From NCBI RefSeq assembly GCF_007747215.1, contig NZ_CP036273.1, positions 2,526,322-2,590,321 on the forward strand: a stretch of 64,000 bases of DNA, given 5' to 3'. The position numbers and the translations under genes are program-made. This document shows, in pieces, positions 4,325 through 55,671 of the stretch. Source of the stretch: Urbifossiella limnaea (GTDB lineage: Bacteria > Planctomycetota > Planctomycetia > Gemmatales > Gemmataceae). Each line of letters opens with the position of its first letter. Positions within the stretch are counted from its first letter, which is position 1. Below the pieces are notes generated by a model. The model saw only the letters and a program-made list of their open reading frames with translations. It did not search any database and was not told where the DNA came from.

Positions 4325-5599
4325 TTACTTCTTCGGCGGCGCCAGTTCCAGCGTCGCCGTCTCGTTCACCTTAACTTCGACGGTACCGCTCAGCTCGCCG
4401 AGCCGAACCTCGTAGCGGCCGGGGGCCAGCCGCTCGAACCGGGCCACGCCGTCGCGCACGTCGGCGTCGAGCCCCAGCGCCGACGCCGCGGTGGCAAACA
4501 CTTCCGGCGGCAGCGGCGAGTCGTCGGCGGGCACGGCCTGTGCCTTTCCGGTCGTCCCCGCCGGCGCTTTGACGGCCAACTTGCCGGCTGCGGCGGGGTT
4601 CAGCGCGAAGTCGTGCGCCAGCTTGCCGTCGGCCGGCAGGGTCAGCCACTTGGCCTGCGGGGCGAACCCGTCCGACGCCGCGAACACCAGGTACTTCCCG
4701 GCCGGCAGCCGGACGTGCTCGTACCGCCCGGCCTTGTCCGCGGCCTCGGCCGTGACGTACACTGTGGCCCGCGGCTTGGCGTTGTCCGAGCGGCCGAACA
4801 GCCCGCCGGCGCCGGCGAACGGCATCACCAGGGAATCGACCGGCGGCGCCTCCTTCACCAGTCCCACGTAGCCGACCGCGACTTTCGTGTCGGCCTTCGC
4901 CCCGGCCACGGTCACCGCCCCCTGCACGAACGGCGTGTCGTCCGCACCCGGCGGCTCGCTCGGCGACCGCACGAAGTCGGCGGTGAACGTGCCGGCCAGA
5001 AAGTCCTTCTCCTCGCCGGGCAGGCTCAGGTAGACACGGCCGGCGACACTCCCCTTCTCGCGCTTGCCCAGTTCCAGCGTCAGGCCGTAGCCGTGCGGGT
5101 ACTCGTACAGCTTCGGCAGGTCGCCCGCCTTCACCGGCGGCAACTCGACGCCCACCGTGGGCACCTTCCCCATCGGGTCGTCCGGCTTTACGACCAGCTT
5201 GACACCGCCGGCCGCGGTCTTCGCCTGCTCCTCCAGCAGCTTTACGGACATCGTCTTGAGGGCGTTGCCGTCCTTGTCGATGGTGCGGAACGTCAGCGTG
5301 TCGGTCTGGAACTCGACCTGCTGCGGGGCGAACGCGGCCTTGCCGAGTGACCCGGACGGCGGAGCGGCGGGGACGACGTGCTTCGCCGGGTCCGGCTCCC
5401 ACACCGCTGCGGGCACGGAGGGCACTACTGGCGTCTTCGGATCCTCCTTCTTCGGCTCGTCGGGCTTCGGCTGCGGGGTCGGGGTGCCGGCCGGCGGTGC
5501 GTCGGCAGGTGTCGGGGCCTTCGGCTCCGGGGTTGGCGGGGTCGAATTCCCACCGCAGCCCAGCGCCACGATCAGCAACAACCCGCACAGCGTCCGCAT
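4325..5599 (-). CDS. predicted lipoprotein with carboxypeptidase-regulatory-like domain
   Basis: A 424-residue exported protein. MRTLCGLLLIVALGC ends in a lipobox-like cysteine at residue 15, followed by about 50 residues rich in Pro, Lys and Thr. Near residues 280-330 the stretch RYEHVRLPAGKYLVFAASDG resembles the beta-sandwich of carboxypeptidase regulatory-like (Ig-like) domains, and a second similar unit, ERLAPGRYEVRLGELSG, closes the protein. Such modules usually bind or space; no enzyme motif is seen. Longer open frames upstream lack the signal sequence, so the start at 5599 is preferred. It lies between the DUF1549/1553 and DUF1501 genes. Confidence 0.6.
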   Translation of the reverse strand: MRTLCGLLLIVALGCGGNSTPPTPEPKAPTPADAPPAGTPTPQPKPDEPKKEDPKTPVVPSVPAAVWEPDPAKHVVPAAPPSGSLGKAAFAPQQVEFQTDTLTFRTIDKDGNALKTMSVKLLEEQAKTAAGGVKLVVKPDDPMGKVPTVGVELPPVKAGDLPKLYEYPHGYGLTLELGKREKGSVAGRVYLSLPGEEKDFLAGTFTADFVRSPSEPPGADDTPFVQGAVTVAGAKADTKVAVGYVGLVKEAPPVDSLVMPFAGAGGLFGRSDNAKPRATVYVTAEAADKAGRYEHVRLPAGKYLVFAASDGFAPQAKWLTLPADGKLAHDFALNPAAAGKLAVKAPAGTTGKAQAVPADDSPLPPEVFATAASALGLDADVRDGVARFERLAPGRYEVRLGELSGTVEVKVNETATLELAPPKK

Positions 5600-5697
5600 C
5601 GGTGTCTCCGGCCTGGAGTCGGGTGGGCGTCCGCGCCCCCGTACGAGGTCGATTGTAAAGGAAGCTGGCGGGGGCGGGCCAGACCGACTCGCGGCCG

Positions 5698-7263
5698 TCA
5701 GTGGTTCACGCCGAACTCCAGCGACGCCAGCAGCGCCCACGCCAGCCGACCGAGCGCCGCCGGCCGCGCCGCTGCGTGCTTCGCCAGCACCTCGCACACC
5801 GTCCGGGCCTCGTCCGCCGACGGCCGCCGCGTCAGCACCGCCAGGTACAGTTCGTCCGCGACGGCCGCATCCGGCAGCGCCGCGAGCCGCGACACGAGGT
5901 TTCCCGGTGCCGGCTCCACGAGCTTCAGCACGGCCGCGTCGTGGAGCACGAACAGCGCCGCCTTCAGCGACGGGGCGTACTCGTCCTCGGGGTCGCGCGG
6001 CTGGTTGTCGAACGCCTTGTGGAACTTCGCCCGAAGCGCGTCCGCCGCCTTCGCGTCCGCCTCGGTCGCCTTCAGCGTCGCGCTCAGCAGTTGGTCGGCC
6101 GTCAACCGCTTCTCGACGGCGGTACCGAAGTACCACGGGTCGGCCCGCTCCGCGCTCGCGGGGAGGCGGCTGCTCCGCTGGTACGCCTTCGTGCGGGCCA
6201 ACTCACCGATCAGCCACTTCAGGTCGAACCGCTTCGCGGCGAACTCCGTGGCCAGCAGGTCCAGCAACTCGGGGTGCGAGCCGGGGTTCGCGGAGTGGTG
6301 CAGGTCGAGCGGGTGAACGAGCCCGCGGCCCATGAACGCGAACCACACCCGGTTGACGATGTTGCGGGCGAAGTCGCGGTTGCCCGCGCGTGGGATCAAC
6401 TCGGCGGCCGCGGCCAGGGTGCTGAACTTTGGCACGCCGGGGCTGTTCGTCTTGCGGTCCGGCGGCTCGGCGAATTCTTGCCCCTTCGGGAAAGTGGGAA
6501 TGGCGAGCATCGTGCCGCCGGGCAGGGCCGGGGCAGTGGTCATTGGCACCTTCGTGAAGACGCTGGCGAAGCCGAGCTTCTCCGCGGTCACCTTCTCGCC
6601 GACGTGCAGCTTGGCGGCGCTGACCAGCGAGAGGTTGCGGAAGAAGGCGTGGAGCCCCTGAAAGTCCTGCTGCTTGTAGTCGGCCACGACGAGGTGGTCG
6701 TGGCACTCGCAGCACTGGAAGTTCTTGCCGAGGAACAGCCGGCCCACGTCACGGGTGAGGGCCGAGTGGTCCACCGGGTTCTGGCCGTAGTTTTCGAGCC
6801 GCTTGCTGAGGAAGAACGCGGCGCCGAGCGTGTCGGGGTTTTTGTGGTCGGCCCGGAGCATGTCGCGGGCCATCGTGTCCCACGGGGCGTTGGCGGCGAA
6901 CGACTTCCGCAGGTACGCCGTCCACTCGGGGCTGTCGCCGAGCCGCTCCATGAGCGCGACGTGGAACAGGTCCGTCATCCGCTCCGCGTAGCTTGGCGCG
7001 GCCAGCAGGGCGGCGATCCGCTTCTCCCGCTTCTTGGCGTCGATGTCGGCGAGGAACGCTTTCGCCTCGGCGGCGCTGGGCAGCGTACCGGCCAGGTCGA
7101 GGGTGACGCGGCGGAGGAACTCGCCGTCGTCGGCCGGCGGCGACAGCGGCACGGCGTCTGCGGCGGCTTTCGCCTCGATCAGTGCGTCGATGCGAGCCGT
7201 AAGGTCGGCGCGGGCGGTGCCGGCGAGGGCAAGAACGGCCAGTACGGCCGCGAGGCGGGGCAT
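5698..7263 (-). CDS. DUF1549/DUF1553 (PSCyt2/PSD1) protein
   Basis: A 521-residue secreted protein with signal peptide MPRLAAVLAVLALAGTARA. The DUF1549 half (about residues 20-230) holds FLRRVTLDLAGTLPSAAEA and the family hallmark FQCCECHDHL, whose CCECH fits a CxxCH haem-attachment motif. The DUF1553 half (about 290-510) holds FARNIVNRVWFAFMGRGLV and GSHPELLDLLATEF. These proteins are nearly exclusive to planctomycetes and relatives and nearly always accompany a DUF1501 protein, as here two genes downstream. A role in electron transfer or polymer breakdown at the cell surface has been proposed but not shown. The open frame extends far upstream of 7263 without a signal sequence. Confidence 0.88.
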   Translation of the reverse strand: MPRLAAVLAVLALAGTARADLTARIDALIEAKAAADAVPLSPPADDGEFLRRVTLDLAGTLPSAAEAKAFLADIDAKKREKRIAALLAAPSYAERMTDLFHVALMERLGDSPEWTAYLRKSFAANAPWDTMARDMLRADHKNPDTLGAAFFLSKRLENYGQNPVDHSALTRDVGRLFLGKNFQCCECHDHLVVADYKQQDFQGLHAFFRNLSLVSAAKLHVGEKVTAEKLGFASVFTKVPMTTAPALPGGTMLAIPTFPKGQEFAEPPDRKTNSPGVPKFSTLAAAAELIPRAGNRDFARNIVNRVWFAFMGRGLVHPLDLHHSANPGSHPELLDLLATEFAAKRFDLKWLIGELARTKAYQRSSRLPASAERADPWYFGTAVEKRLTADQLLSATLKATEADAKAADALRAKFHKAFDNQPRDPEDEYAPSLKAALFVLHDAAVLKLVEPAPGNLVSRLAALPDAAVADELYLAVLTRRPSADEARTVCEVLAKHAAARPAALGRLAWALLASLEFGVNH

Positions 7264-48762: not shown

Positions 48763-49833
48763 ATGGAACACACTTCACACGACTTCCTCCGCCGCCTGCT
48801 GGACACGCCGAGCCCGTCCGGGTTCGAGCAGCAAATCCAGCAGGTCGTCCGCGACCACGTTCGCGACTTCGCCGACGAGGTGACCACCGACCGCCACGGC
48901 AACGTCTTCGCCAACCGCTTCCCCGACGGCCGCCCCGCCGACGCCCCGCGGATCCTCCTGGCCGGCCACTGCGACCAGATCGCATTGATGGTGCAGCACG
49001 TCGACGACGCCGGCTACCTGTACGTGCAGCCCATCGGCGGCTGGGACATGCAGGTGCTCCTCGGCCAGCACCTCACCGTGTGGACGAAGACCGGCCCCGT
49101 CGCCGGCGTGGTCGCCCGGCGGGCGATTCACCTGCTGAAGCCGGAGGAGCGGACGAAGGTGCCGGACTTCGCCGACGTGTGGGTGGACATCGGCGCGAAG
49201 GACAAGGCCGACGCGGAAGCCGTGGTGCGGCACGGCGACCCGGTGACGTTCGAGCTGGGGTACCGGCCGCTCCGCAACGGCCTCGCGGCCAGCCCGGCGA
49301 TGGACGACAAGGTCGGCCTGTGGGTGGTGATGGAGGCCGTGCGGCTGCTGAAGGGGAAAACCCTGAAGGCGGCCGTGTACGGCGTCTCGACGGTGGCCGA
49401 GGAGATCGGCCTGCGCGGGGCGACGACCGCGAGCTACGCCGTGGACCCGACCGTCGGCATCGCCGTGGACGTGACGCACGCCACCGACACGCCGGGCAAC
49501 GACAAGAAGACGCAGGGCGACATCAAGTGCGGGGCCGGGCCGGTGCTGTTCCGCGGGCCGAACATCAGCCCGCGGGTGTTCGACCTGCTCGACGAGCTGG
49601 CGAAGGCGCACGGCATCCCGGTGCAGGTGCGCGGCGTGCCGCGGGCGACGGGGACGGACGCGAACGCCATCCAAATTAGCCGGGCCGGCGTGGCGTGCGG
49701 CCTGCTGGGCATCCCGAACCGCTACATGCACAGCCCGGTGGAGGTCGTCCACCTCGACGACCTGACGAACGCGGCGAAGCTGCTGGCGGAGTTCTGTCTG
49801 GCCGTCGGGCCGGAGACGAACTGGATTCCGTGA
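48763..49833 (+). CDS. M42-family metallopeptidase
   Basis: A 356-residue cytoplasmic aminopeptidase of the M42 (glutamyl aminopeptidase/TET) family. LDTPSPSGFEQQIQ opens the fold; metal and catalytic residues are in LLAGHCDQIALMV (His and Asp), SPAMDDKVGLWVV (bridging Asp), STVAEEIGLRG (Glu pair), GIAVDVTHATD and MHSPVEVVHLDD (distal His). M42 enzymes form dodecameric shells and trim peptides with N-terminal Glu, Asp or hydrophobic residues. The gene starts 24 bases after the 41-bp repeat. Confidence 0.92.
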   Translation: MEHTSHDFLRRLLDTPSPSGFEQQIQQVVRDHVRDFADEVTTDRHGNVFANRFPDGRPADAPRILLAGHCDQIALMVQHVDDAGYLYVQPIGGWDMQVLLGQHLTVWTKTGPVAGVVARRAIHLLKPEERTKVPDFADVWVDIGAKDKADAEAVVRHGDPVTFELGYRPLRNGLAASPAMDDKVGLWVVMEAVRLLKGKTLKAAVYGVSTVAEEIGLRGATTASYAVDPTVGIAVDVTHATDTPGNDKKTQGDIKCGAGPVLFRGPNISPRVFDLLDELAKAHGIPVQVRGVPRATGTDANAIQISRAGVACGLLGIPNRYMHSPVEVVHLDDLTNAAKLLAEFCLAVGPETNWIP

Positions 49834-49840
49834 CGCGGTC

Positions 49841-49896
49841 GTGGGGCCGGTTTTCAGCCGGCCGGTTCACGCCGGCCGGTTGGAATCCGACCCCAC
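49841..49896. terminator. imperfect hairpin overlapping the end of the sugar isomerase gene
   Basis: Arms 49841-49865 and 49872-49896 pair at 21 of 25 positions around a six-base loop. The stop codon of the leftward sugar isomerase gene lies in the loop region (49867-49869) and its last nine codons lie in the right arm. Confidence 0.6.
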
Positions 49897-50709
49897 TCTC
49901 GAGTACACGTCGCGGACGAGCCGCACCGCATCGGATACCGCATCGGTCGTGAACGGCGTCGGCTCCCGCATCTCCACCGACACCCACTCCGCGTACCCGC
50001 GCTGCTTCAACTCGCCGGCGAACGCCGCGTGATCGACCGCGCCTCGCGCCCCGGGGGCCGCCAGGTCCGGCTCGCTGACATGGAAGTGCCCGAGCAGCGC
50101 GAAGCCGGCTTCGAACGTCTCTCGGAGCGGGTCGCCGGCGAGCGTCATGCACGCCGTATCCAGGTGCAGTCGAAACGCCGGGTGGTCGACGACGCGGACC
50201 AGCTCGACCGCATCCGCGGCCCGCGTGACGAAGTCGGCCCCGTACCGCGGCGGATTCGCCTCCAGCACCACGGTCGTGCCGGCGTCCGCGGCGTGCGCCG
50301 CGAGGCGGCGGAAGAATGGTACCGCGGTGTCACGCGCCGCCGTGCCCGGCAGGTCGCCGCGGCGGCGGTTCTTCGGCGAGCCGAACACGCACGCCCCGGC
50401 CCCGAGCCGGCCGCACGTCGCCAGCACGCGCCCCAGGTATTCCAGGGTTCGCTCGCGCACCTCGGCGGAATCGAACAGCGTGAGGTCGGGCCGCCCGAAC
50501 AGGAGTGCCTGGGCCGCGACGACGGCGAAGCCCTGGTCGGCCCACCACTCGCGGGCCGCGTCCACGTCCGCGGGCGCTGCCGCCGACGGGTCCGCGAACA
50601 GCTTCGTCGGCGCCACCTCGACGGCCGTGACACCGAGTTCACGGAGCGCGGAAAGCACCGCCGGCTGCTCGGCGACCGGCCAGGCGATGTTCGAGACGGC
50701 CAGCTTCAC
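49867..50709 (-). CDS. sugar phosphate isomerase/epimerase (AP-endonuclease-2 TIM barrel)
   Basis: A 280-residue TIM-barrel protein. LAVSNIAWPVAEQPAVLSAL, TTVVLEANPPRYGADFV (metal Glu), FRLHLDTACMTLAGDP (Asp) and FHVSEPDLAAPG (His, Glu) match the xylose isomerase-like/AP endonuclease family 2 fold, with final metal-type Glu in WVSVEMREP. Members isomerise or epimerise sugars or dehydrate inosose. A GTG start overlaps the upstream stop (GTGA). It is the last gene of the six-gene cluster. Its last residues are encoded by an inverted repeat. Confidence 0.82.
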   Translation of the reverse strand: MKLAVSNIAWPVAEQPAVLSALRELGVTAVEVAPTKLFADPSAAAPADVDAAREWWADQGFAVVAAQALLFGRPDLTLFDSAEVRERTLEYLGRVLATCGRLGAGACVFGSPKNRRRGDLPGTAARDTAVPFFRRLAAHAADAGTTVVLEANPPRYGADFVTRAADAVELVRVVDHPAFRLHLDTACMTLAGDPLRETFEAGFALLGHFHVSEPDLAAPGARGAVDHAAFAGELKQRGYAEWVSVEMREPTPFTTDAVSDAVRLVRDVYSRVGSDSNRPA

Positions 50710-51488
50710 GCCGCGAGCCTCGGGGCGGTCCGCTGGGCGGCGACGAAGCGCGTCAACCCGGCGAGCACTTCATCGCGTGTTTCCAGGTAGTCTCCGCGGC
50801 CGCCGAACAACTCGGCGTGCGCCGTGCGCACGTCGAAGCACGCCGGTCGCGTGCCGGGGTCGTTCGTGAAGTCGCGGCCGAACGCCGCCCGCGCCACCTC
50901 GCGCACCGTGACCGGCGCCGTCGCCAGGTTGACGCGCCGCAAGCCGGCGGCGAGGGCCGTCTCGATGTCGCGGCCGAGTCGGGCCAGGTTGTAGAACTGG
51001 TAGCTGGCGCCGGCGTGAACCTTGTCCAGCCGGTTGTCGTGGAGGAGGTCGTACAGGGCGTTCTTCTTCAGGCCCGGCCCGTACAGCCCGGGGAGCCGCA
51101 CCGCCAGGCTGCGCGGGAAGTGCCACCGCACGCGGCGCTCCAACTCCCACCGGTGCTCGCCGTACGGCGTCGAAAAGTTCGGCTCGATCATCGAGCCCTC
51201 GTCCACGCAGATCGGCGTGGCGTACACGGCCACGGTCGAGATCACCACGCACTCGTCGGCCCGGCACTGTTCCAGGTTCGCCCACAGCCGTTCGAGGTTG
51301 GCGCGGTCGGCGACCGGGTCGCGGTTGGCGACCCACATCTCGGCCGGCATCGCGCTCACCACCAATCGGCGGAACCGCTTCCCGCGGATGGCCTCGATCG
51401 TCTTGGAGTTGAAGACGGCGTCGAACCGGTGCTGCGCGGCGAGGTTGCCGCCGACGAACCCGGTGTGGCCGACGAGGGCGTCCGACAT
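50706..51488 (-). CDS. NAD(P)-dependent sugar epimerase/dehydratase-like (SDR)
   Basis: A 260-residue short-chain dehydrogenase of the extended type but smaller than usual. The nucleotide loop is altered to VGHTGFVGGNLA, FRRLVVSAMPAEMWVANRDP follows, ECVVISTVAVYATP is the Ser region and STPYGEHRWELERRV supplies the Tyr (its Lys partner is replaced by Arg or Glu). RLPGLYGPGLKKNALYDLLH is the sugar-binding part. It probably acts on a nucleotide-linked sugar, but the changed Tyr-x3-Lys pair casts doubt on classic chemistry. It is followed in translation by the TIM-barrel gene. Confidence 0.7.
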   Translation of the reverse strand: MSDALVGHTGFVGGNLAAQHRFDAVFNSKTIEAIRGKRFRRLVVSAMPAEMWVANRDPVADRANLERLWANLEQCRADECVVISTVAVYATPICVDEGSMIEPNFSTPYGEHRWELERRVRWHFPRSLAVRLPGLYGPGLKKNALYDLLHDNRLDKVHAGASYQFYNLARLGRDIETALAAGLRRVNLATAPVTVREVARAAFGRDFTNDPGTRPACFDVRTAHAELFGGRGDYLETRDEVLAGLTRFVAAQRTAPRLAA

Positions 51489-51503
51489 GGCAATCTCCGC
51501 GTA

Positions 51504-52301
51504 TCAGGGGTTGAACCGGCCGAGGCACGCGGCGAACAGGCACCGCAGAACCCGCAGGTTGCCGCGGACCGGACTGATCTTCGTCGGCGTCGGCCCGTGT
51601 CGCGGGTATCGGCGCGCGACCGGGATTTCCTTGACCCGGAACCCGAGCCGGGCGGCCCGGATGGCCAGGTAGTAGTGCAGCTCGTAGCCGGGGAACACGT
51701 CGCGGAACGCCGCCACCCGCGGGTCGGCGAGGAAGCGGGCGCTGTAGCCGCGGAAGCCGTTGGTCGTGTCCGTGTAGCGGAACCGGCTCGCCAGCGACAC
51801 CAGCGGTGCGTGAACGAGCTTCACCCCCAGCCAGCGCGACAGCGGCAGGTTCTCCGACACGCCGCCGGGGACGAAGCGCGAACCCTGAACGTGATCACAG
51901 CCGGCTCCCAGGGCGGCGACGAACCGCGGAATCGCGTCGGGGCCGTCCTTGCCGTTGCCGTCCATCGCCACGACGCCGCGGTAGCCGCGATCGAGCGCCC
52001 AGGCGAAGGCCATTCGCATCTGCGCACCGAGCTTGCCGGCCCCGGTCTTCGTCAGCAGCGTGTTCACGCCCAGGGCTCGGAGCGCCTCACGCTCCGTCGA
52101 GCCGTCGGTGCTGCCGCCGTCCGCGACGACCACGTCGGCGAGCCCGGCGCAGTGCTCCCGCATGGCGGCGAGTTGCTTCGGGAGCTTGGCGGCCTCGTTG
52201 ATGACGAACACGCACACGCAGTAGTCCGTGGCGCGCGGCGCGAACTCGTCGGCCGTGAAGGCCGGCACCTGCCGCGGCTGGAGGAGCGCGTCGGGCATCA
52301 T
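51504..52301 (-). CDS. family 2 glycosyltransferase
   Basis: A 265-residue GT-A enzyme with no membrane segment. CVCVFVINEAAKLPKQLAAM and VVVADGGSTDGS bind the nucleotide, and GVVAMDGNGKDGPDAIPRFV carries DGN in place of the usual DxD. VQGSRFVPGGVSENLPLSRW and YTDTTNGFRGYSARFL are typical of polyprenyl-phosphate glycosyltransferases. ATG 52301 (MMPDALLQ) follows the previous stop by two bases. It is the third glycan gene in the cluster counted from the 3' end. Confidence 0.85.
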   Translation of the reverse strand: MMPDALLQPRQVPAFTADEFAPRATDYCVCVFVINEAAKLPKQLAAMREHCAGLADVVVADGGSTDGSTEREALRALGVNTLLTKTGAGKLGAQMRMAFAWALDRGYRGVVAMDGNGKDGPDAIPRFVAALGAGCDHVQGSRFVPGGVSENLPLSRWLGVKLVHAPLVSLASRFRYTDTTNGFRGYSARFLADPRVAAFRDVFPGYELHYYLAIRAARLGFRVKEIPVARRYPRHGPTPTKISPVRGNLRVLRCLFAACLGRFNP

Positions 52302-52303
52302 GT

Positions 52304-53302
52304 CTACTCGGAGTGGCTCATCACGTTTCGGCGTGTGAGGTCGGACAACATCACGGCGCTGGCCTGCTCCTCGCGGACGTGGTACAGCGGCCGCCCGCCC
52401 GAGTCGTCGACCAGCCGGCCGAGGTGCTCGCCGATCATGGTGAGCATCACAAACACGAGGAAGAACAGGCCGCTCGTCTGGAGGCTGATCCCCGTCCACC
52501 CCGGCATCACGTCCGGCTTGGTGAGGTACACGCCGATCACGTACAGGCTGTACAGGACGCTCAGGGCGCTGCCGCCGAGGCCGAGGAGTGAGACGACGCG
52601 GAGCGGGGCGACGGAGTGGCCGAGCGTGAGGCTCACGGCGCGGCGGGCGGAGCGGCGGAGGTTGACGCGCGGCTGCTTGCCGCCGCGGGCCAGGAAGCGG
52701 TACGGGTGCGTCGTGGTCGTCAGCCCGATCTCGGCGGCGAGGAGGCCGAAGTGTCGCTTGCGGACGCGGACGCGCGTCAGGGCGTTCACCGCGGCGCGCG
52801 TCAGGCAGCGGAAGCCGCTGTTCACGCGGACCACGTTCGCGCCGAACGTCGGCCCCGCGATACGCTGGAAAAGCCAGCGGAGAACCCGGTACGAGACGCC
52901 CGGCGCGGCGGGGTACGGGGCCACGCCGACGACCACGTCCGCCCCGCCGCGGCACGCCTCGACCAACTCCGGGATCACCGCGGGCGGGTCGAACTCCGGG
53001 TGAAGCGTCACCACGTAGTCGCCGATGGCCGCGTCGAGGCCGGCCATGACGGCGGTCTCCGGCGCCTGCCGCCGCGACAGCCGCAAGTAGCGGACGCACT
53101 TGTACCGGGCCAGCAGTTCCCGCACGACAGCGGGCGTGTCGTCGCGGGAGCCGTTGTCGACTAACACCAGCTCGAAATTCGTGTAGTGCGCGTCGAGCGT
53201 CTTGTAGGATTCGTCCACGAACGCCGGGAGGAACCGCGCGTAGCTCCGCAGCGCGGCGACCACGGAGACGAACACGTCGGATCGAGGTGCGGCGCGGGTC
53301 AT
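52304..53302 (-). CDS. GtrB-like family 2 glycosyltransferase without DxD
   Basis: A 332-residue membrane-anchored GT2. FELVLVDNGSRDDTPAVVRE keeps the nucleotide site, but the expected DADLQDPP motif reads LHPEFDPP in DYVVTLHPEFDPPAVIPE, so both metal-binding Asp residues are missing. Two C-terminal membrane helices (about residues 235-262 and 277-298) match bactoprenol glucosyltransferases. It overlaps the upstream oxidoreductase gene by ATGA. It may be inactive, may use another ligand set, or may act with the second transferase next door. Confidence 0.8.
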   Translation of the reverse strand: MTRAAPRSDVFVSVVAALRSYARFLPAFVDESYKTLDAHYTNFELVLVDNGSRDDTPAVVRELLARYKCVRYLRLSRRQAPETAVMAGLDAAIGDYVVTLHPEFDPPAVIPELVEACRGGADVVVGVAPYPAAPGVSYRVLRWLFQRIAGPTFGANVVRVNSGFRCLTRAAVNALTRVRVRKRHFGLLAAEIGLTTTTHPYRFLARGGKQPRVNLRRSARRAVSLTLGHSVAPLRVVSLLGLGGSALSVLYSLYVIGVYLTKPDVMPGWTGISLQTSGLFFLVFVMLTMIGEHLGRLVDDSGGRPLYHVREEQASAVMLSDLTRRNVMSHSE

Positions 53303-54420
53303 GCAGCCTCGCGGAGTGTCGTCGGCGGCGCGTCGAGGCGCTTGTTCAATTCGTCGGTCACGTCGTACACGTTGTCGATTTTACCGCCCATCACCACGTG
53401 ATAATTCGGCACGCCGTGGTCGGGGCGGAACAAGATCGGCCGGCTGTCGTCGGCCTCGCTGCGGGGCAGCACCGTCTTCACCTCCCACAGCGAGTCACGG
53501 TACTCACAGCGGGCCAGCGCCGGCAGGTAGCGGGCGGCGTCCCGCACCATGTGCGGGAAGGCGGTGCGGCGCTCGGCGGCGGCGGCTACGGCGTAGGCCG
53601 CCGTCGGGGCCGGGTCGTACCAGTGGCCGTGCGGCGTGTAGCGGACGTGGCTCAGCGTGTGGAGGCCGCGCGGGGGGAACGGCATGCACGAGAAGAACGG
53701 GCCGTCCATGACCGTCACCCCGAGCCCCTTCAGCGCGGCCGGCACCTCGACCAGCGCCATCTCCGCGAGTTCGTGCTTCAGCGGGATCACCGGCAGCCCC
53801 GACGCGGCGGCCGCCGCGTTCGTCTGGGCGTAGGAGCAGGTCACAACCAGCCCCGCCGCCACGTCTGCCCCCGCCGCACGTACCCGCAACGCGGCACCGG
53901 GTAGCGGCGTAACCTTTTCCACCGGCGTGTTCAGCCGCACGGTCACGCCTGCGCGTCGCACCCGCTCAGCCATCACGTCGCGGAGGCGGGCGGCGTCGAA
54001 GGCGTATTCGCGGACGCGGAATACGTCCTCGACCAGGTCGCGGTCGAACAGCCGCGTCACGCCCACGTCCGCCGGCTCGACCGGGGCGCCGATCCGCCGC
54101 ATGGCCTCGGCGAACTGGCCGGCCGTGACCTTCGAGCCGCGGCGGGCCACGGCGTACAGCTTCTCGAACGTCGCGTCCACGGCCGGGGCGAACTCGGCGA
54201 CGAACCGCGGGAAGTTCACCCGGCTGCGGACGGCGGTGAGCACGCTCCGCGGGTAGTGGTAGCCGTTGTGGACGCGGGCCTGGTTCGCGTAGGACGCCCG
54301 CGCCATCAGCGCCGGCCCGGCCTCGCACAGCAGCACCCGGCGGAAGCGGGCGGCCAGTTGCTCGGCCAGGTACAGGCCGTAGAACCCGCCGCCGACCACG
54401 ACCGCGTTCCACCGCTCCAT
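53299..54420 (-). CDS. FAD-dependent oxidoreductase of the glycan cluster
   Basis: A 373-residue DAO-fold flavoprotein. The FAD loop is AVVVGGGFYGLYLAEQLAAR, and YANQARVHNGYHYPRSVLTA is a recognisable block of oxidoreductases that sit in surface-polysaccharide clusters. The end, NYHVVMGGKIDNVYDVTDEL, closes the flavin site. Substrate could be a nucleotide-linked or lipid-linked sugar rather than an amino acid, given the neighbours. ATG 54420 starts the flavin fold. It ends in a 4-base overlap with the next gene. Confidence 0.78.
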   Translation of the reverse strand: MERWNAVVVGGGFYGLYLAEQLAARFRRVLLCEAGPALMARASYANQARVHNGYHYPRSVLTAVRSRVNFPRFVAEFAPAVDATFEKLYAVARRGSKVTAGQFAEAMRRIGAPVEPADVGVTRLFDRDLVEDVFRVREYAFDAARLRDVMAERVRRAGVTVRLNTPVEKVTPLPGAALRVRAAGADVAAGLVVTCSYAQTNAAAAASGLPVIPLKHELAEMALVEVPAALKGLGVTVMDGPFFSCMPFPPRGLHTLSHVRYTPHGHWYDPAPTAAYAVAAAAERRTAFPHMVRDAARYLPALARCEYRDSLWEVKTVLPRSEADDSRPILFRPDHGVPNYHVVMGGKIDNVYDVTDELNKRLDAPPTTLREAA

Positions 54421-54428
54421 CGGTGCCC

Positions 54429-55250
54429 CTACGCGGCTTCGCCGTCCGGGCGGAACCCGGACGGCCCGGTCACCCCCCGCTTCGAGTCTCTCACGAAGTC
54501 GATCAGCTCCCGCACCGCGGGGAGCGCCCCGAATTGGGCCTCGGCCCGCAGCATCGCCACCGGAATCAGGAGCCGCTCGACGTAGATCGACCGGAAGACG
54601 CGCCGCACGGCGTTGATCTCCGCGTTCGATACGCCCGCGCGGCGCATCCCGACGACGTTCACGCCGCAGACGTGGTTCACGTCCTGGATGACCCAGAACG
54701 GCGGGATGTCCTTGCTGCTGGCCGACGAGCCGCTGAGCAAGGCCAGTCGGCCGACGCGGCAGAACTGGTGGACGGCCGAGTTCCCGCTGAGGAAGACGCG
54801 GTCGCCGGTCGTCACGTGGCCGCCGAGCAGGGCCGAATTCGCGTAAATGCCGTGGTTGCCCACCACACAGTCGTGGGCGACGTGGGCACCGGCCATGAAC
54901 AGGTTTCCGTCGCCGATGGTCGTCACGCCCGTCCCCGGGCCGGCGCCGGTCGGCATGCCGCGGTGAACGGTGACGTGTTCGCGGAACGTGTTGCCGGCGC
55001 CGATCACGACGCGAGTCGGCTCGCCGGCGTAGGCCGTGTGCTGCGGGGCGCCGCCGATCACACTGCCAGTGTCGAACGTGTTGTTCGGGCCGGCCGTCAG
55101 CGGGCCGGTCAGACGGGCTTGCGCGGCGACCACGCAGCCGGGGCCGAGTTCGACCTGGCCGTCGATTACCGCCAGCGGGCCGACGCGTACGTCCGGGGCG
55201 AGTTGGGCGTCGGGCGACACCACGGCAGAGGGGTGAATCAGCGGCGGCAT
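54429..55250 (-). CDS. LpxA-like acyltransferase with left-handed beta-helix
   Basis: A 273-residue trimeric hexapeptide-repeat enzyme. PPLIHPSAVVSPDAQLAPDV begins the helix, AHVAHDCVVGNHG carries the catalytic His of LpxA, and SSASSKDIPPFWVIQDVNHV precedes the C-terminal helical domain (VRRVFRSIYVERLLIPVAML). LpxA adds a 3-hydroxyacyl chain to UDP-GlcNAc in lipid A synthesis. Here it opens a glycan cluster instead of an lpx operon, so it may acylate another UDP-sugar. A GTG at 55268 could extend it by six residues. Confidence 0.85.
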   Translation of the reverse strand: MPPLIHPSAVVSPDAQLAPDVRVGPLAVIDGQVELGPGCVVAAQARLTGPLTAGPNNTFDTGSVIGGAPQHTAYAGEPTRVVIGAGNTFREHVTVHRGMPTGAGPGTGVTTIGDGNLFMAGAHVAHDCVVGNHGIYANSALLGGHVTTGDRVFLSGNSAVHQFCRVGRLALLSGSSASSKDIPPFWVIQDVNHVCGVNVVGMRRAGVSNAEINAVRRVFRSIYVERLLIPVAMLRAEAQFGALPAVRELIDFVRDSKRGVTGPSGFRPDGEAA

Positions 55251-55341
55251 GGGCTTCCTTCCGGGCACCGCGGGCGGCTCGGTTTACCCCAAGCCCCGCC
55301 GCCGTGCCAGCCCAGTTTCCCCAGCCGCATATCCTGACGGG

Positions 55342-55671
55342 ATGCCGACCCTGTTCATGGTCGAACTCGCCGTCGCTGACGCCGCCGCGTCCCGCAGGTG
55401 GTACGAGGTCACGCTCGGGATGAAGGTCGTGACGGTCGATGCGTCCACCGGGTTCGCGCTGCTCCAGGACGAGCGCGGCGGGCGGCTCGCGCTGAAGCCA
55501 GGCACGCCGAACCCGGGGGGTGTGACGCTGCACTTCGAGGTCGCGGACGTGGCCGCGGCGATACGGGGGCTACGGCCGGACGGCCCGGCCGTGGTCAGCC
55601 CCGAGGGCTACCGCGAGGCGTTCGTCCGCGACCCGGACGGGTATCGCGTGGGGCTGTTCGCGTGGACCTGA
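55342..55671 (+). CDS. glyoxalase/bleomycin-resistance/dioxygenase (VOC) protein
   Basis: A 109-residue vicinal-oxygen-chelate protein. LFMVELAVADAAASRRWYEV, GMKVVTVDASTGFALLQDE and FEVADVAAAIRGLRPDG form the two beta-alpha-beta-beta-beta units, ending with FVRDPDGYRVGLFAWT. Metal positions are partly conserved (Glu in VELAV and HFEV) but the substrate cannot be told: members include lactoylglutathione lyase, fosfomycin and bleomycin resistance and dioxygenases. It converges on the TPR gene with two bases between stops. Confidence 0.85.
   Translation: MPTLFMVELAVADAAASRRWYEVTLGMKVVTVDASTGFALLQDERGGRLALKPGTPNPGGVTLHFEVADVAAAIRGLRPDGPAVVSPEGYREAFVRDPDGYRVGLFAWT

What the first reader, a model, noticed from the sequence alone, without database searches (positions are those of the whole stretch)
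49867..55250. Six-gene co-directional cluster for an unidentified acylated or modified surface sugar
LpxA-like acyltransferase, FAD oxidoreductase, two GT2 glycosyltransferases, an SDR epimerase and a TIM-barrel sugar isomerase run leftward with spacings of 8, -4, 2, 15 and -4 bases. Together they could oxidise, epimerise, acylate and transfer a sugar to a lipid carrier. The LpxA homologue is outside an lpx operon, one transferase lacks DxD and the SDR has a changed catalytic pair, so the chemistry may be non-standard. No matching described pathway was recognised.
Basis: partly seen in the sequence, partly recalled or inferred. Interest (0 to 1): 0.65.

Follow-up and report, generated by a model that had tools for sequence, protein, structure and literature searches.

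The report
Travelling kit for an unusual sugar
Five of the six neighbouring genes form a kit, seen also on plasmids of other bacteria and with its core in bacterial viruses, that probably remodels a sugar and loads it on a membrane lipid; the sixth is an ordinary gene for making the outer membrane.

Summary
The six leftward genes and their spacings are real. "LpxA-like" is the genome's only LpxA; LpxC, LpxB and KdtA are also single and far apart, so it is a housekeeping neighbour, linked only in this genus (6 of 6 genomes). The other five (FAD oxidoreductase, two GT2 proteins, SDR, TIM barrel) are one cassette: of 72,556 plasmids the same 12 carry FAD and SDR, and all 10 with the second GT2 are among them; four more genomes of a 392-genome phylum sample have all five together. 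FAD+SDR+TIM alone recur in phage contigs (58 of 80 SDR loci; 7 of 14 clusters). Fusions: FAD-SDR, and the two GT2s as one 592-residue frame. Family-wide oddities: SDR Tyr-x-x-x-Arg (98 of 98), no complete DxD at its place in the first GT2 (16 of 16), Asp-Gly-Asn-x-Lys-Asp in the second (15 of 15). Best reading: flavin oxidation, epimerisation and reduction of a sugar, loaded on polyprenyl phosphate as in Gtr systems. All reactions are inferred; acylation is unsupported. No description found in nine literature searches. New variant of a known kind.

The parts
54429..55250 (-). LpxA, acyl-ACP--UDP-GlcNAc O-acyltransferase; sole copy in the genome; housekeeping neighbour, judged not part of the cassette
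   Evidence: Over two curated NCBIfam cut-offs; only match over cut-off in G000; 17 distinct solved LpxA-type sequences at E<1e-37
53299..54420 (-). FAD-dependent oxidoreductase of the DAO superfamily; proposed oxidation of a sugar hydroxyl to a ketone
   Evidence: PF01266 72.7 bits; model pLDDT 84, VIA-align Z 30.1 to E. coli GlpD, 29.6 to glycine oxidase; H51, G53, R58, E138, G240 in 81 of 81 sequences
52304..53302 (-). GT2-a: GtrB/ArnC-like protein with two C-terminal membrane helices and no complete DxD at the usual place (His-Pro-Glu here); proposed membrane partner of GT2-b, perhaps inactive by itself
   Evidence: PgfS 105.9 bits, ArnC 70.2 bits, both below cut-off; profile match to GtrB sll0501 E 1.2e-45; no complete DxD in 16 of 16; two hydrophobic segments; one frame with GT2-b in L089
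51504..52301 (-). GT2-b: soluble AglJ/dolichyl-phosphate-mannose-synthase-like GT2 with invariant DGNxKD; proposed catalytic polyprenyl-phosphate sugar synthase
   Evidence: AglJ 57.7 bits, below cut-off; DPMS match E 4e-9; DGNxKD in 15 of 15; fused to a multi-span part in L093 and to GT2-a in L089
50706..51488 (-). Extended SDR with Tyr-x-x-x-Arg; proposed keto-sugar reductase
   Evidence: No family match; model pLDDT 92, nearest folds GalE, RmlD, RMD; S84, Y109, R113 in 98 of 98
49867..50709 (-). TIM-barrel sugar isomerase/epimerase; proposed epimerisation next to the ketone
   Evidence: PF01261 99.5 bits; IolO and D-psicose 3-epimerase below cut-off; metal-site residues E150 80 of 80, D184 78, H210 78, E246 77, the rest gaps, aligned with D-tagatose 3-epimerase

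Best explanation
Five genes (FAD, GT2-a, GT2-b, SDR, TIM; 49867-54420) are a horizontally spread sugar-tailoring and lipid-loading cassette; LpxA is a housekeeping gene that became its upstream neighbour in this genus. Proposed mechanism: the flavoenzyme oxidises one hydroxyl of a sugar (nucleotide- or lipid-linked) to a ketone; the metal-dependent TIM barrel inverts a neighbouring carbon, as ketose 3-epimerases do; the SDR reduces the ketone. GT2-b puts the sugar on undecaprenyl (or other polyprenyl) phosphate, held at the membrane by GT2-a; a GtrA/SMR-type protein flips it and a GT-C enzyme transfers it to a surface glycan or protein. Shown: gene content, linkage, family membership, conserved residues, fusions. 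Inferred: every reaction, substrate and product; flippase and GT-C are not next to the cassette in the window.
For: Linkage: FAD in 12 of 72,556 plasmids and SDR in the same 12; GT2-b at E<=1e-20 in 10, all among them. Of 8 plasmid regions opened (of 12), 7 have all five genes (GT2-a in L089 and L093 by position and alignment only) and 6 a GtrA or SMR gene inside. Phylum sample of 392 genomes: 9 SDR matches, the window's genome included; of the 8 others, 4 have all five clustered. Distances of the five proteins correlate over 19 complete cassettes, r 0.88-0.94, 0 of 1000 permutations. Core triad: 58 of 80 phage SDR loci carry FAD and TIM, 7 of 14 clusters. Fusions: FAD-SDR in L101; GT2-a with GT2-b as one 592-residue frame in L089; GT2-b with a weakly PMT_2-like membrane part in L093. 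Chemistry: TIM metal ligands kept; FAD fold near GlpD, a secondary-alcohol oxidiser (reaction recalled); SDR fold near RmlD, RMD and GalE. Lipid loading: GT2-a is GtrB/ArnC-like, GT2-b DPMS/AglJ-like; multi-span proteins beside the cassette in L032, L176, L177, L178 and five plasmids. Precedent for Gtr-type systems with a tailoring epimerase: PMC11127046 (passages).
Against: No GtrA/SMR or GT-C gene seen next to the cassette in the window (by eye); a GT87 follows it in L026 and 11 GT87 matches over cut-off lie elsewhere in G000. Most of the solved DAO matches are amine oxidisers by name. Arg for the catalytic Lys may lower SDR redox activity (recalled; a lab-made K140R of GDP-fucose synthase is among the fold matches). 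Incomplete sets exist: G055 lacks GT2-b and TIM, G030 has only FAD and SDR, G033 only FAD; L178 lacks FAD, L181-L183 have SDR matches alone; M. huakuii has only FAD, SDR, TIM among insertion sequences. Phages carry the triad without GT2-a/b, so the triad does not need a polyprenyl-linked donor. GT2-a may still be active: an acid remains at the third DxD position in 13 of 16, and L031-L033 have a D-x-D string two or fewer residues off. 10 of the 12 plasmids are typed non-mobilizable.
Confidence: 0.55

Rival explanations
1. A six-gene lipid A/LPS modification operon in which LpxA acylates the odd sugar made by the others, so an unusual acylated lipid A or glycolipid results.
For: All six genes are in order and co-directional in 6 of 6 genomes of the genus; LpxA variants with other sugar substrates exist (recalled).
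Against: LpxA is the sole copy, so it must make ordinary lipid A precursor if the cell has lipid A. None of the 24 LpxA loci fetched outside the genus has FAD, GT2-a, SDR or TIM within up to about 1.5 kb, and one has a 56-residue GT2-b match. No LpxA match in the cassette regions L031-L035 and L176-L183 or in the 81 phage loci, and no LpxA-annotated gene in the 8 opened plasmid regions.
Confidence: 0.07
2. The triad makes a rare nucleotide sugar in the cytoplasm, and GT2-a/GT2-b are ordinary transferases that add it to a growing surface glycan; no polyprenyl monophosphate donor is involved.
For: In phages the triad sits with a PHROG-named glycosyltransferase, a DXD-type protein (just under its Pfam cut-off) and a DUF4422 protein, not with GT2-a/b, so it can serve other donors; analogous stepwise GDP-heptose remodelling in Campylobacter (PMC10680097, abstract).
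Against: GT2-a is GtrB/ArnC-like with two membrane helices; GT2-b resembles polyprenyl-phosphate synthases and is fused to a PMT_2-like part in L093 and to GT2-a in L089; GtrA/SMR genes sit inside 6 of 8 opened plasmid cassettes.
Confidence: 0.23
3. The SDR is not a reductase: with Arg for Lys it catalyses a non-redox step or only binds, and the flavoenzyme both oxidises and re-reduces the substrate.
For: Tyr-x-x-x-Arg in 98 of 98 SDRs, too constant for drift; FAD-SDR fusion suggests direct hand-over.
Against: Ser84, Tyr109 and the glycine-motif residues G7, G10, G13 are kept at 100% and the fold is that of GalE/RmlD-type redox enzymes.
Confidence: 0.1

Closest known systems
Gtr three-component extracytoplasmic glycosylation (GtrA flippase, GtrB undecaprenyl-phosphate glucose synthase, serotype-specific GT-C)
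   Same: GtrB-like GT2 with membrane helices; GtrA or SMR gene in 6 of 8 opened plasmid cassettes; multi-span transferase-like proteins beside it; PMC11127046 passages describe the scheme
   Different: GtrB-like member lacks a complete DxD and is paired with a second, soluble GT2; three sugar-remodelling enzymes are built in; GtrA and GT-C not adjacent in the window
Mycobacterial DprE1/DprE2 route to decaprenyl-phosphate arabinose, and the Citrobacter pentofuranose systems (PMC11127046)
   Same: Oxidation and reduction by two enzymes to change a lipid-linked sugar's stereochemistry, SMR exporter, GT-C use (passages)
   Different: FAD enzyme is DAO-type (PF01266), not DprE1's family (recalled: FAD_binding_4/VAO); an extra TIM-barrel epimerase; GT2 loading, not phosphoribosyl transfer
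Campylobacter GDP-heptose remodelling (C4-dehydrogenase, C3/C5-epimerases, C4-reductases)
   Same: Separate enzymes oxidise, epimerise and reduce one sugar (abstract of PMC10680097)
   Different: No flavoenzyme or TIM-barrel epimerase is named in that abstract; no lipid-loading module there
D-tagatose/D-psicose 3-epimerases and IolO (TIM partner)
   Same: Same fold family and metal-site residues
   Different: 45 and 58.7 bits against cut-offs of 300; substrate unknown

Membership tests
LpxA (acyl-ACP--UDP-GlcNAc O-acyltransferase) | Curated equivalog score | tested here: met
   278.4 vs 226 and 269.9 vs 231.05 bits
LpxA (acyl-ACP--UDP-GlcNAc O-acyltransferase) | Acyl transfer to UDP-GlcNAc | not testable with these tools
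   Needs an enzyme assay; the AHxAHDC motif with the catalytic His (recalled) is in the translation
Gtr three-component system | GtrB-type membrane GT2 with DxD | tested here: not met
   GT2-a is GtrB-like by profile but has no complete DxD at the aligned place in 16 of 16; an acid stays at its third position in 13
Gtr three-component system | GtrA-type flippase and GT-C transferase linked to it | tested here: inconclusive
   Not seen among window neighbours; GtrA or SMR in 6 of 8 opened plasmid regions; 11 GT87 over cut-off elsewhere in G000
DprE1/DprE2 pathway | DprE1-type flavoenzyme | tested here: not met
   Window FAD protein matches DAO (PF01266) and no FAD_binding_4 model at E<=0.01
DAO superfamily FAD oxidoreductases | PF01266 over cut-off and fold | tested here: met
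   72.7 vs 27.9 bits; Z 28-30 to GlpD, glycine oxidase, NikD, L2HGDH
Classical extended SDR | Ser/Tyr-x-x-x-Lys catalytic set | tested here: not met
   Ser84 and Tyr109 kept, Lys replaced by Arg113 in 98 of 98
AP_endonuc_2 ketose 3-epimerases | E-D-H-E metal site | tested here: met
   E150 80 of 80; D184 78, H210 78 and E246 77 of 80, the rest gaps
Described O-antigen or lipid A cluster | Same gene set in print | tested here: inconclusive
   Nine searches of an open-access library, five of them aimed at the cassette or its hosts (63, 72, 73, 90, 104), found none; subscription papers and preprints not held

The most novel reading that the evidence does not exclude
A previously undescribed, phylum-crossing glycosylation module: a flavin-dependent oxidise-epimerise-reduce triad (also a phage auxiliary pathway) that makes a rare sugar, feeding a two-part polyprenyl-phosphate sugar synthase in which a soluble GT2 with a DGNxKD site works with a membrane-anchored GtrB-like partner that has lost its DxD and, in five plasmid versions, also the nucleotide-binding motif; the two parts are one frame on a Psychrobacter plasmid.
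Probability: 0.35. Interest if true: 0.78.

Novelty: new variant of a known kind. Interest (0 to 1): 0.6.

Why it matters
If right, it is a portable route to an unknown surface sugar shared by the window's phylum, alpha- and gammaproteobacterial plasmids and, for its three-enzyme core, phages, small enough (one 10.8-kb Psychrobacter plasmid carries all five parts) to be tested directly. It would add flavin-based three-step epimerisation and a two-part GT2 synthase to the known ways of making polyprenyl-phosphate sugars, and would say what genes now annotated 'FAD-dependent oxidoreductase', 'TIM barrel protein' and 'hypothetical protein' do.

Tried and rejected
Rejected: LpxA as a special acyltransferase (sole copy; other lpx genes single and far apart). 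Rejected: chance neighbourhood. Set aside: weak SDR matches L181-L183 with no partner nearby, which look like other SDRs. PHROGs gave nothing for FAD, SDR or TIM of window or phage. Literature (titles and abstracts as listed): 3 papers, none on the cassette; 3, mycobacterial; 0; 36 hold the terms, 20 listed, none on the cassette; 0; 5 listed: lipid A evolution, planctomycete outer membrane and essential genes, two others; 0; 13 hold the terms, 6 listed, Campylobacter; 13, 8 listed, Gtr-type systems and others. Papers: PMC3422733, PMC10632474 and PMC11127046 seen as passages, PMC10680097 as abstract and outline. PMC3422733 (passage) tells of an absent O-antigen pathway in R. baltica; PMC10632474 (passage) says almost all of lpxABCDKL are essential in P. 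limnophila. A view of chromosomes outside the window's phylum was not obtained: the one genome-contig scan used a single protein and found one near relative.

Weak points of counts: the phage loci are redundant (80 loci, 14 clusters at 80%); the IMG/VR list kept 80 of 97 matches; 4 of 12 plasmid regions were not opened (three Cereibacter, M. loti); GT2-a in four alphaproteobacterial plasmids rests on weak matches (E 8e-5 to 2e-10), in L093 and L089 on position and alignment; the DxD column comes from a MAFFT alignment without a GtrB row, placed by the profile match; distance correlations cannot separate co-transfer from shared descent; the shortened TIM gene of M. huakuii (L092) was left out of the 80 TIM rows.
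Full report
What is there. In transcription order: LpxA, a DAO-type FAD oxidoreductase (FAD), GT2-a, GT2-b, an SDR and a TIM barrel. Flanking genes run the other way: 48763-49833 below and 55249-55671 above. The genome, G000, is one contig of 7,795,793 bases.

LpxA is housekeeping. It is the only match over the LpxA cut-off in G000 (269.6 bits; the next is 63.6). Of 59 genomes, G000 included, 58 have a match at E<=0.001 and 56 a strong one (E<=1e-40); G028 and G032 have weak ones, G033 none. LpxC lies at 2.65 Mb, KdtA at 1.87 Mb and LpxB at 4.04 Mb, each a single match, against 2.58 Mb for LpxA. So being outside an lpx operon is the rule here. All six genomes of the genus, G000 included, keep LpxA upstream of the five. 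None of the 24 LpxA loci fetched outside the genus has FAD, GT2-a, SDR or TIM within up to about 1.5 kb; one (L073) has a 56-residue match to GT2-b at E 2e-5.

The five-gene cassette. Outside the genus the FAD protein has five strong relatives in the 59-genome set (E<=1e-60): G014 and G025 have all five genes, G055 has FAD, GT2-a and SDR, G030 FAD and SDR, G033 FAD alone. In 392 genomes of the phylum the SDR profile matched 9, G000 among them. Of the other eight, four (L176, L177, L179, L180) have all five clustered, L178 has SDR, TIM, GT2-b and a 591-residue multi-span protein but no FAD match, and three weak ones (L181-L183) have no partner. In 72,556 plasmids, SDR (E<=0.001) and FAD (E<=1e-10) hit exactly the same 12 records, and GT2-b (E<=1e-20) hit 10, all among them; 10 of the 12 are typed non-mobilizable. 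I opened 8 of the 12. Seven carry all five genes (GT2-a in L089 and L093 by position and alignment); Mesorhizobium huakuii keeps FAD, SDR and TIM among transposases. Six of the eight have a GtrA-annotated or SMR gene inside the cassette. On the 10.8-kb Psychrobacter plasmid (L089) the cassette is the main cargo beside mobilisation and replication genes. Gene order differs among hosts while content persists. Over 19 complete cassettes all ten pairs of protein distance matrices correlate at r 0.88-0.94, with 0 of 1000 permutations as high.

Fusions. In L101 FAD and SDR are one 593-residue frame. In L089 GT2-a and GT2-b are one uninterrupted 592-residue frame, 5410-7188, although the plasmid's gene table lists only the second half. 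In L093 GT2-b is joined to a multi-span part with a weak PMT_2 match. Each join links partners of the proposed pathway.

A three-enzyme core in phages. The SDR profile drew 97 matches in IMG/VR, 80 kept: 58 of the 80 loci also carry FAD and TIM, 5 SDR and TIM, 3 FAD and SDR, 14 SDR only. At 80% identity these are 14 clusters; 7 have the full triad and 3 more FAD with SDR. In the type seen in L126, SDR and TIM overlap, FAD lies convergent, and a PHROG-named glycosyltransferase, a DXD-type protein (22.6 bits, cut-off 23) and a DUF4422 protein follow, between genes that look by eye like portal and protease. A 385,934-base contig (L171) has FAD-SDR-TIM in a row. None of the 81 phage loci had a GT2-a, GT2-b or LpxA match, so the triad is a separable unit and can serve other transferases.

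Family-wide oddities. In 98 SDRs Ser84, Tyr109 and Arg113 are invariant: the catalytic Lys is Arg throughout. In 80 TIM proteins the four metal-site residues are kept wherever the row is not a gap (80, 78, 78 and 77 rows). In 81 FAD proteins H51, G53, R58, E138 and G240 are invariant. GT2-a has no complete DxD at the aligned place in 16 of 16: the first Asp is lost in 15, the window reading His-Pro-Glu; an acid stays at the third position in 13, and L031-L033 have a D-x-D string starting two residues on, so loss of activity is not proven. Five alphaproteobacterial plasmid versions also lack the nucleotide motif (DNGS in the window). GT2-b has DGNxKD in 15 of 15. GT2-b is the most conserved member (mean identity 56%), GT2-a the least (31%, minimum 11%); the window's GT2-a has two hydrophobic C-terminal segments and its GT2-b none.

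Structures. The SDR model (pLDDT 92) is nearest to GalE, RmlD and RMD. The FAD model (pLDDT 84) is a DAO fold: Z 30.3 to 3dme (2.9 A, 341 residues), 30.1 to E. coli GlpD, 29.6 to glycine oxidase (these are ties). GlpD and L-2-hydroxyglutarate dehydrogenase oxidise secondary alcohols, most of the others amines (recalled).

Mechanism. A ketone made by FAD, an inversion beside it by the TIM barrel (as its ketose 3-epimerase relatives do) and reduction by the SDR is the simplest chemistry for this trio; none of it is shown. GT2-a is GtrB-like (E 1e-45 to sll0501) and GT2-b DPMS/AglJ-like; multi-span proteins sit beside the cassette in L032, L176, L177 and L178. That points to a polyprenyl-phosphate sugar used outside the membrane, as in the systems described in PMC11127046 (passages). 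I suggest, at about 0.35, that GT2-b is the catalytic part and GT2-a its membrane partner; the L089 fusion speaks for their working together, not for GT2-a being dead. In the window genome no flippase or GT-C gene is seen next to the cassette; a GT87 follows it in L026 and the second gene after TIM in L028 looks alike by eye, and 11 GT87 matches over cut-off lie elsewhere in G000.

What is known. Gtr systems, DprE1/DprE2 and the Campylobacter heptose enzymes each share a part, none the whole. Nine literature searches, five of them aimed at the cassette or its hosts, found no description of this gene set; subscription journals and preprints were not searched. Verdict: real, conserved beyond the genus as five genes rather than six, probably undescribed, product unknown.

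Noticed in passing
L126:7998-13812; similar in L104, L109, L111, L115, L133 (IMG/VR): A phage gene block of SDR-TIM-FAD with several glycosyltransferase-like proteins sits inside what looks by eye like the head-gene operon; it may decorate the phage or its DNA with the same kind of sugar.
   Followed up: partly
L089:5410-7188: GT2-a and GT2-b form one uninterrupted 592-residue open frame on the Psychrobacter plasmid; the gene table lists only its second half.
   Followed up: partly
L101:6906-8687: FAD and SDR fused in one 593-residue open frame on a viral contig.
   Followed up: partly
L093:16492-18930: GT2-b fused to a multi-span, weakly PMT_2-like part (812 residues) on a Rhodobacter plasmid.
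   Followed up: partly
L095:7166-13832: A 145-kb viral contig has a distant FAD relative beside a Gfo/Idh-like protein and genes that read like NeuA and NeuB (by eye), without an SDR or TIM match in the 17 kb held.
   Followed up: no
L030:8944-10137: The FAD gene of one genus member has an apparent internal tandem duplication of about 20 residues; it could be real or an assembly error.
   Followed up: no
L093:9979-11589 and L094:17436-19088: Exosortase-annotated genes (xrtE, xrtD) lie beside the cassette on two rhodobacteral plasmids, hinting at a link to sorted surface proteins.
   Followed up: no
MT839812.1:2415-4010 (phages collection): A 4-kb human faecal contig labelled phage has GT2-b and FAD side by side; it may be bacterial DNA.
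   Followed up: no
L073:1501-2458: In one order-level relative LpxA is followed by the start of a GT2 protein that weakly matches GT2-b.
   Followed up: no
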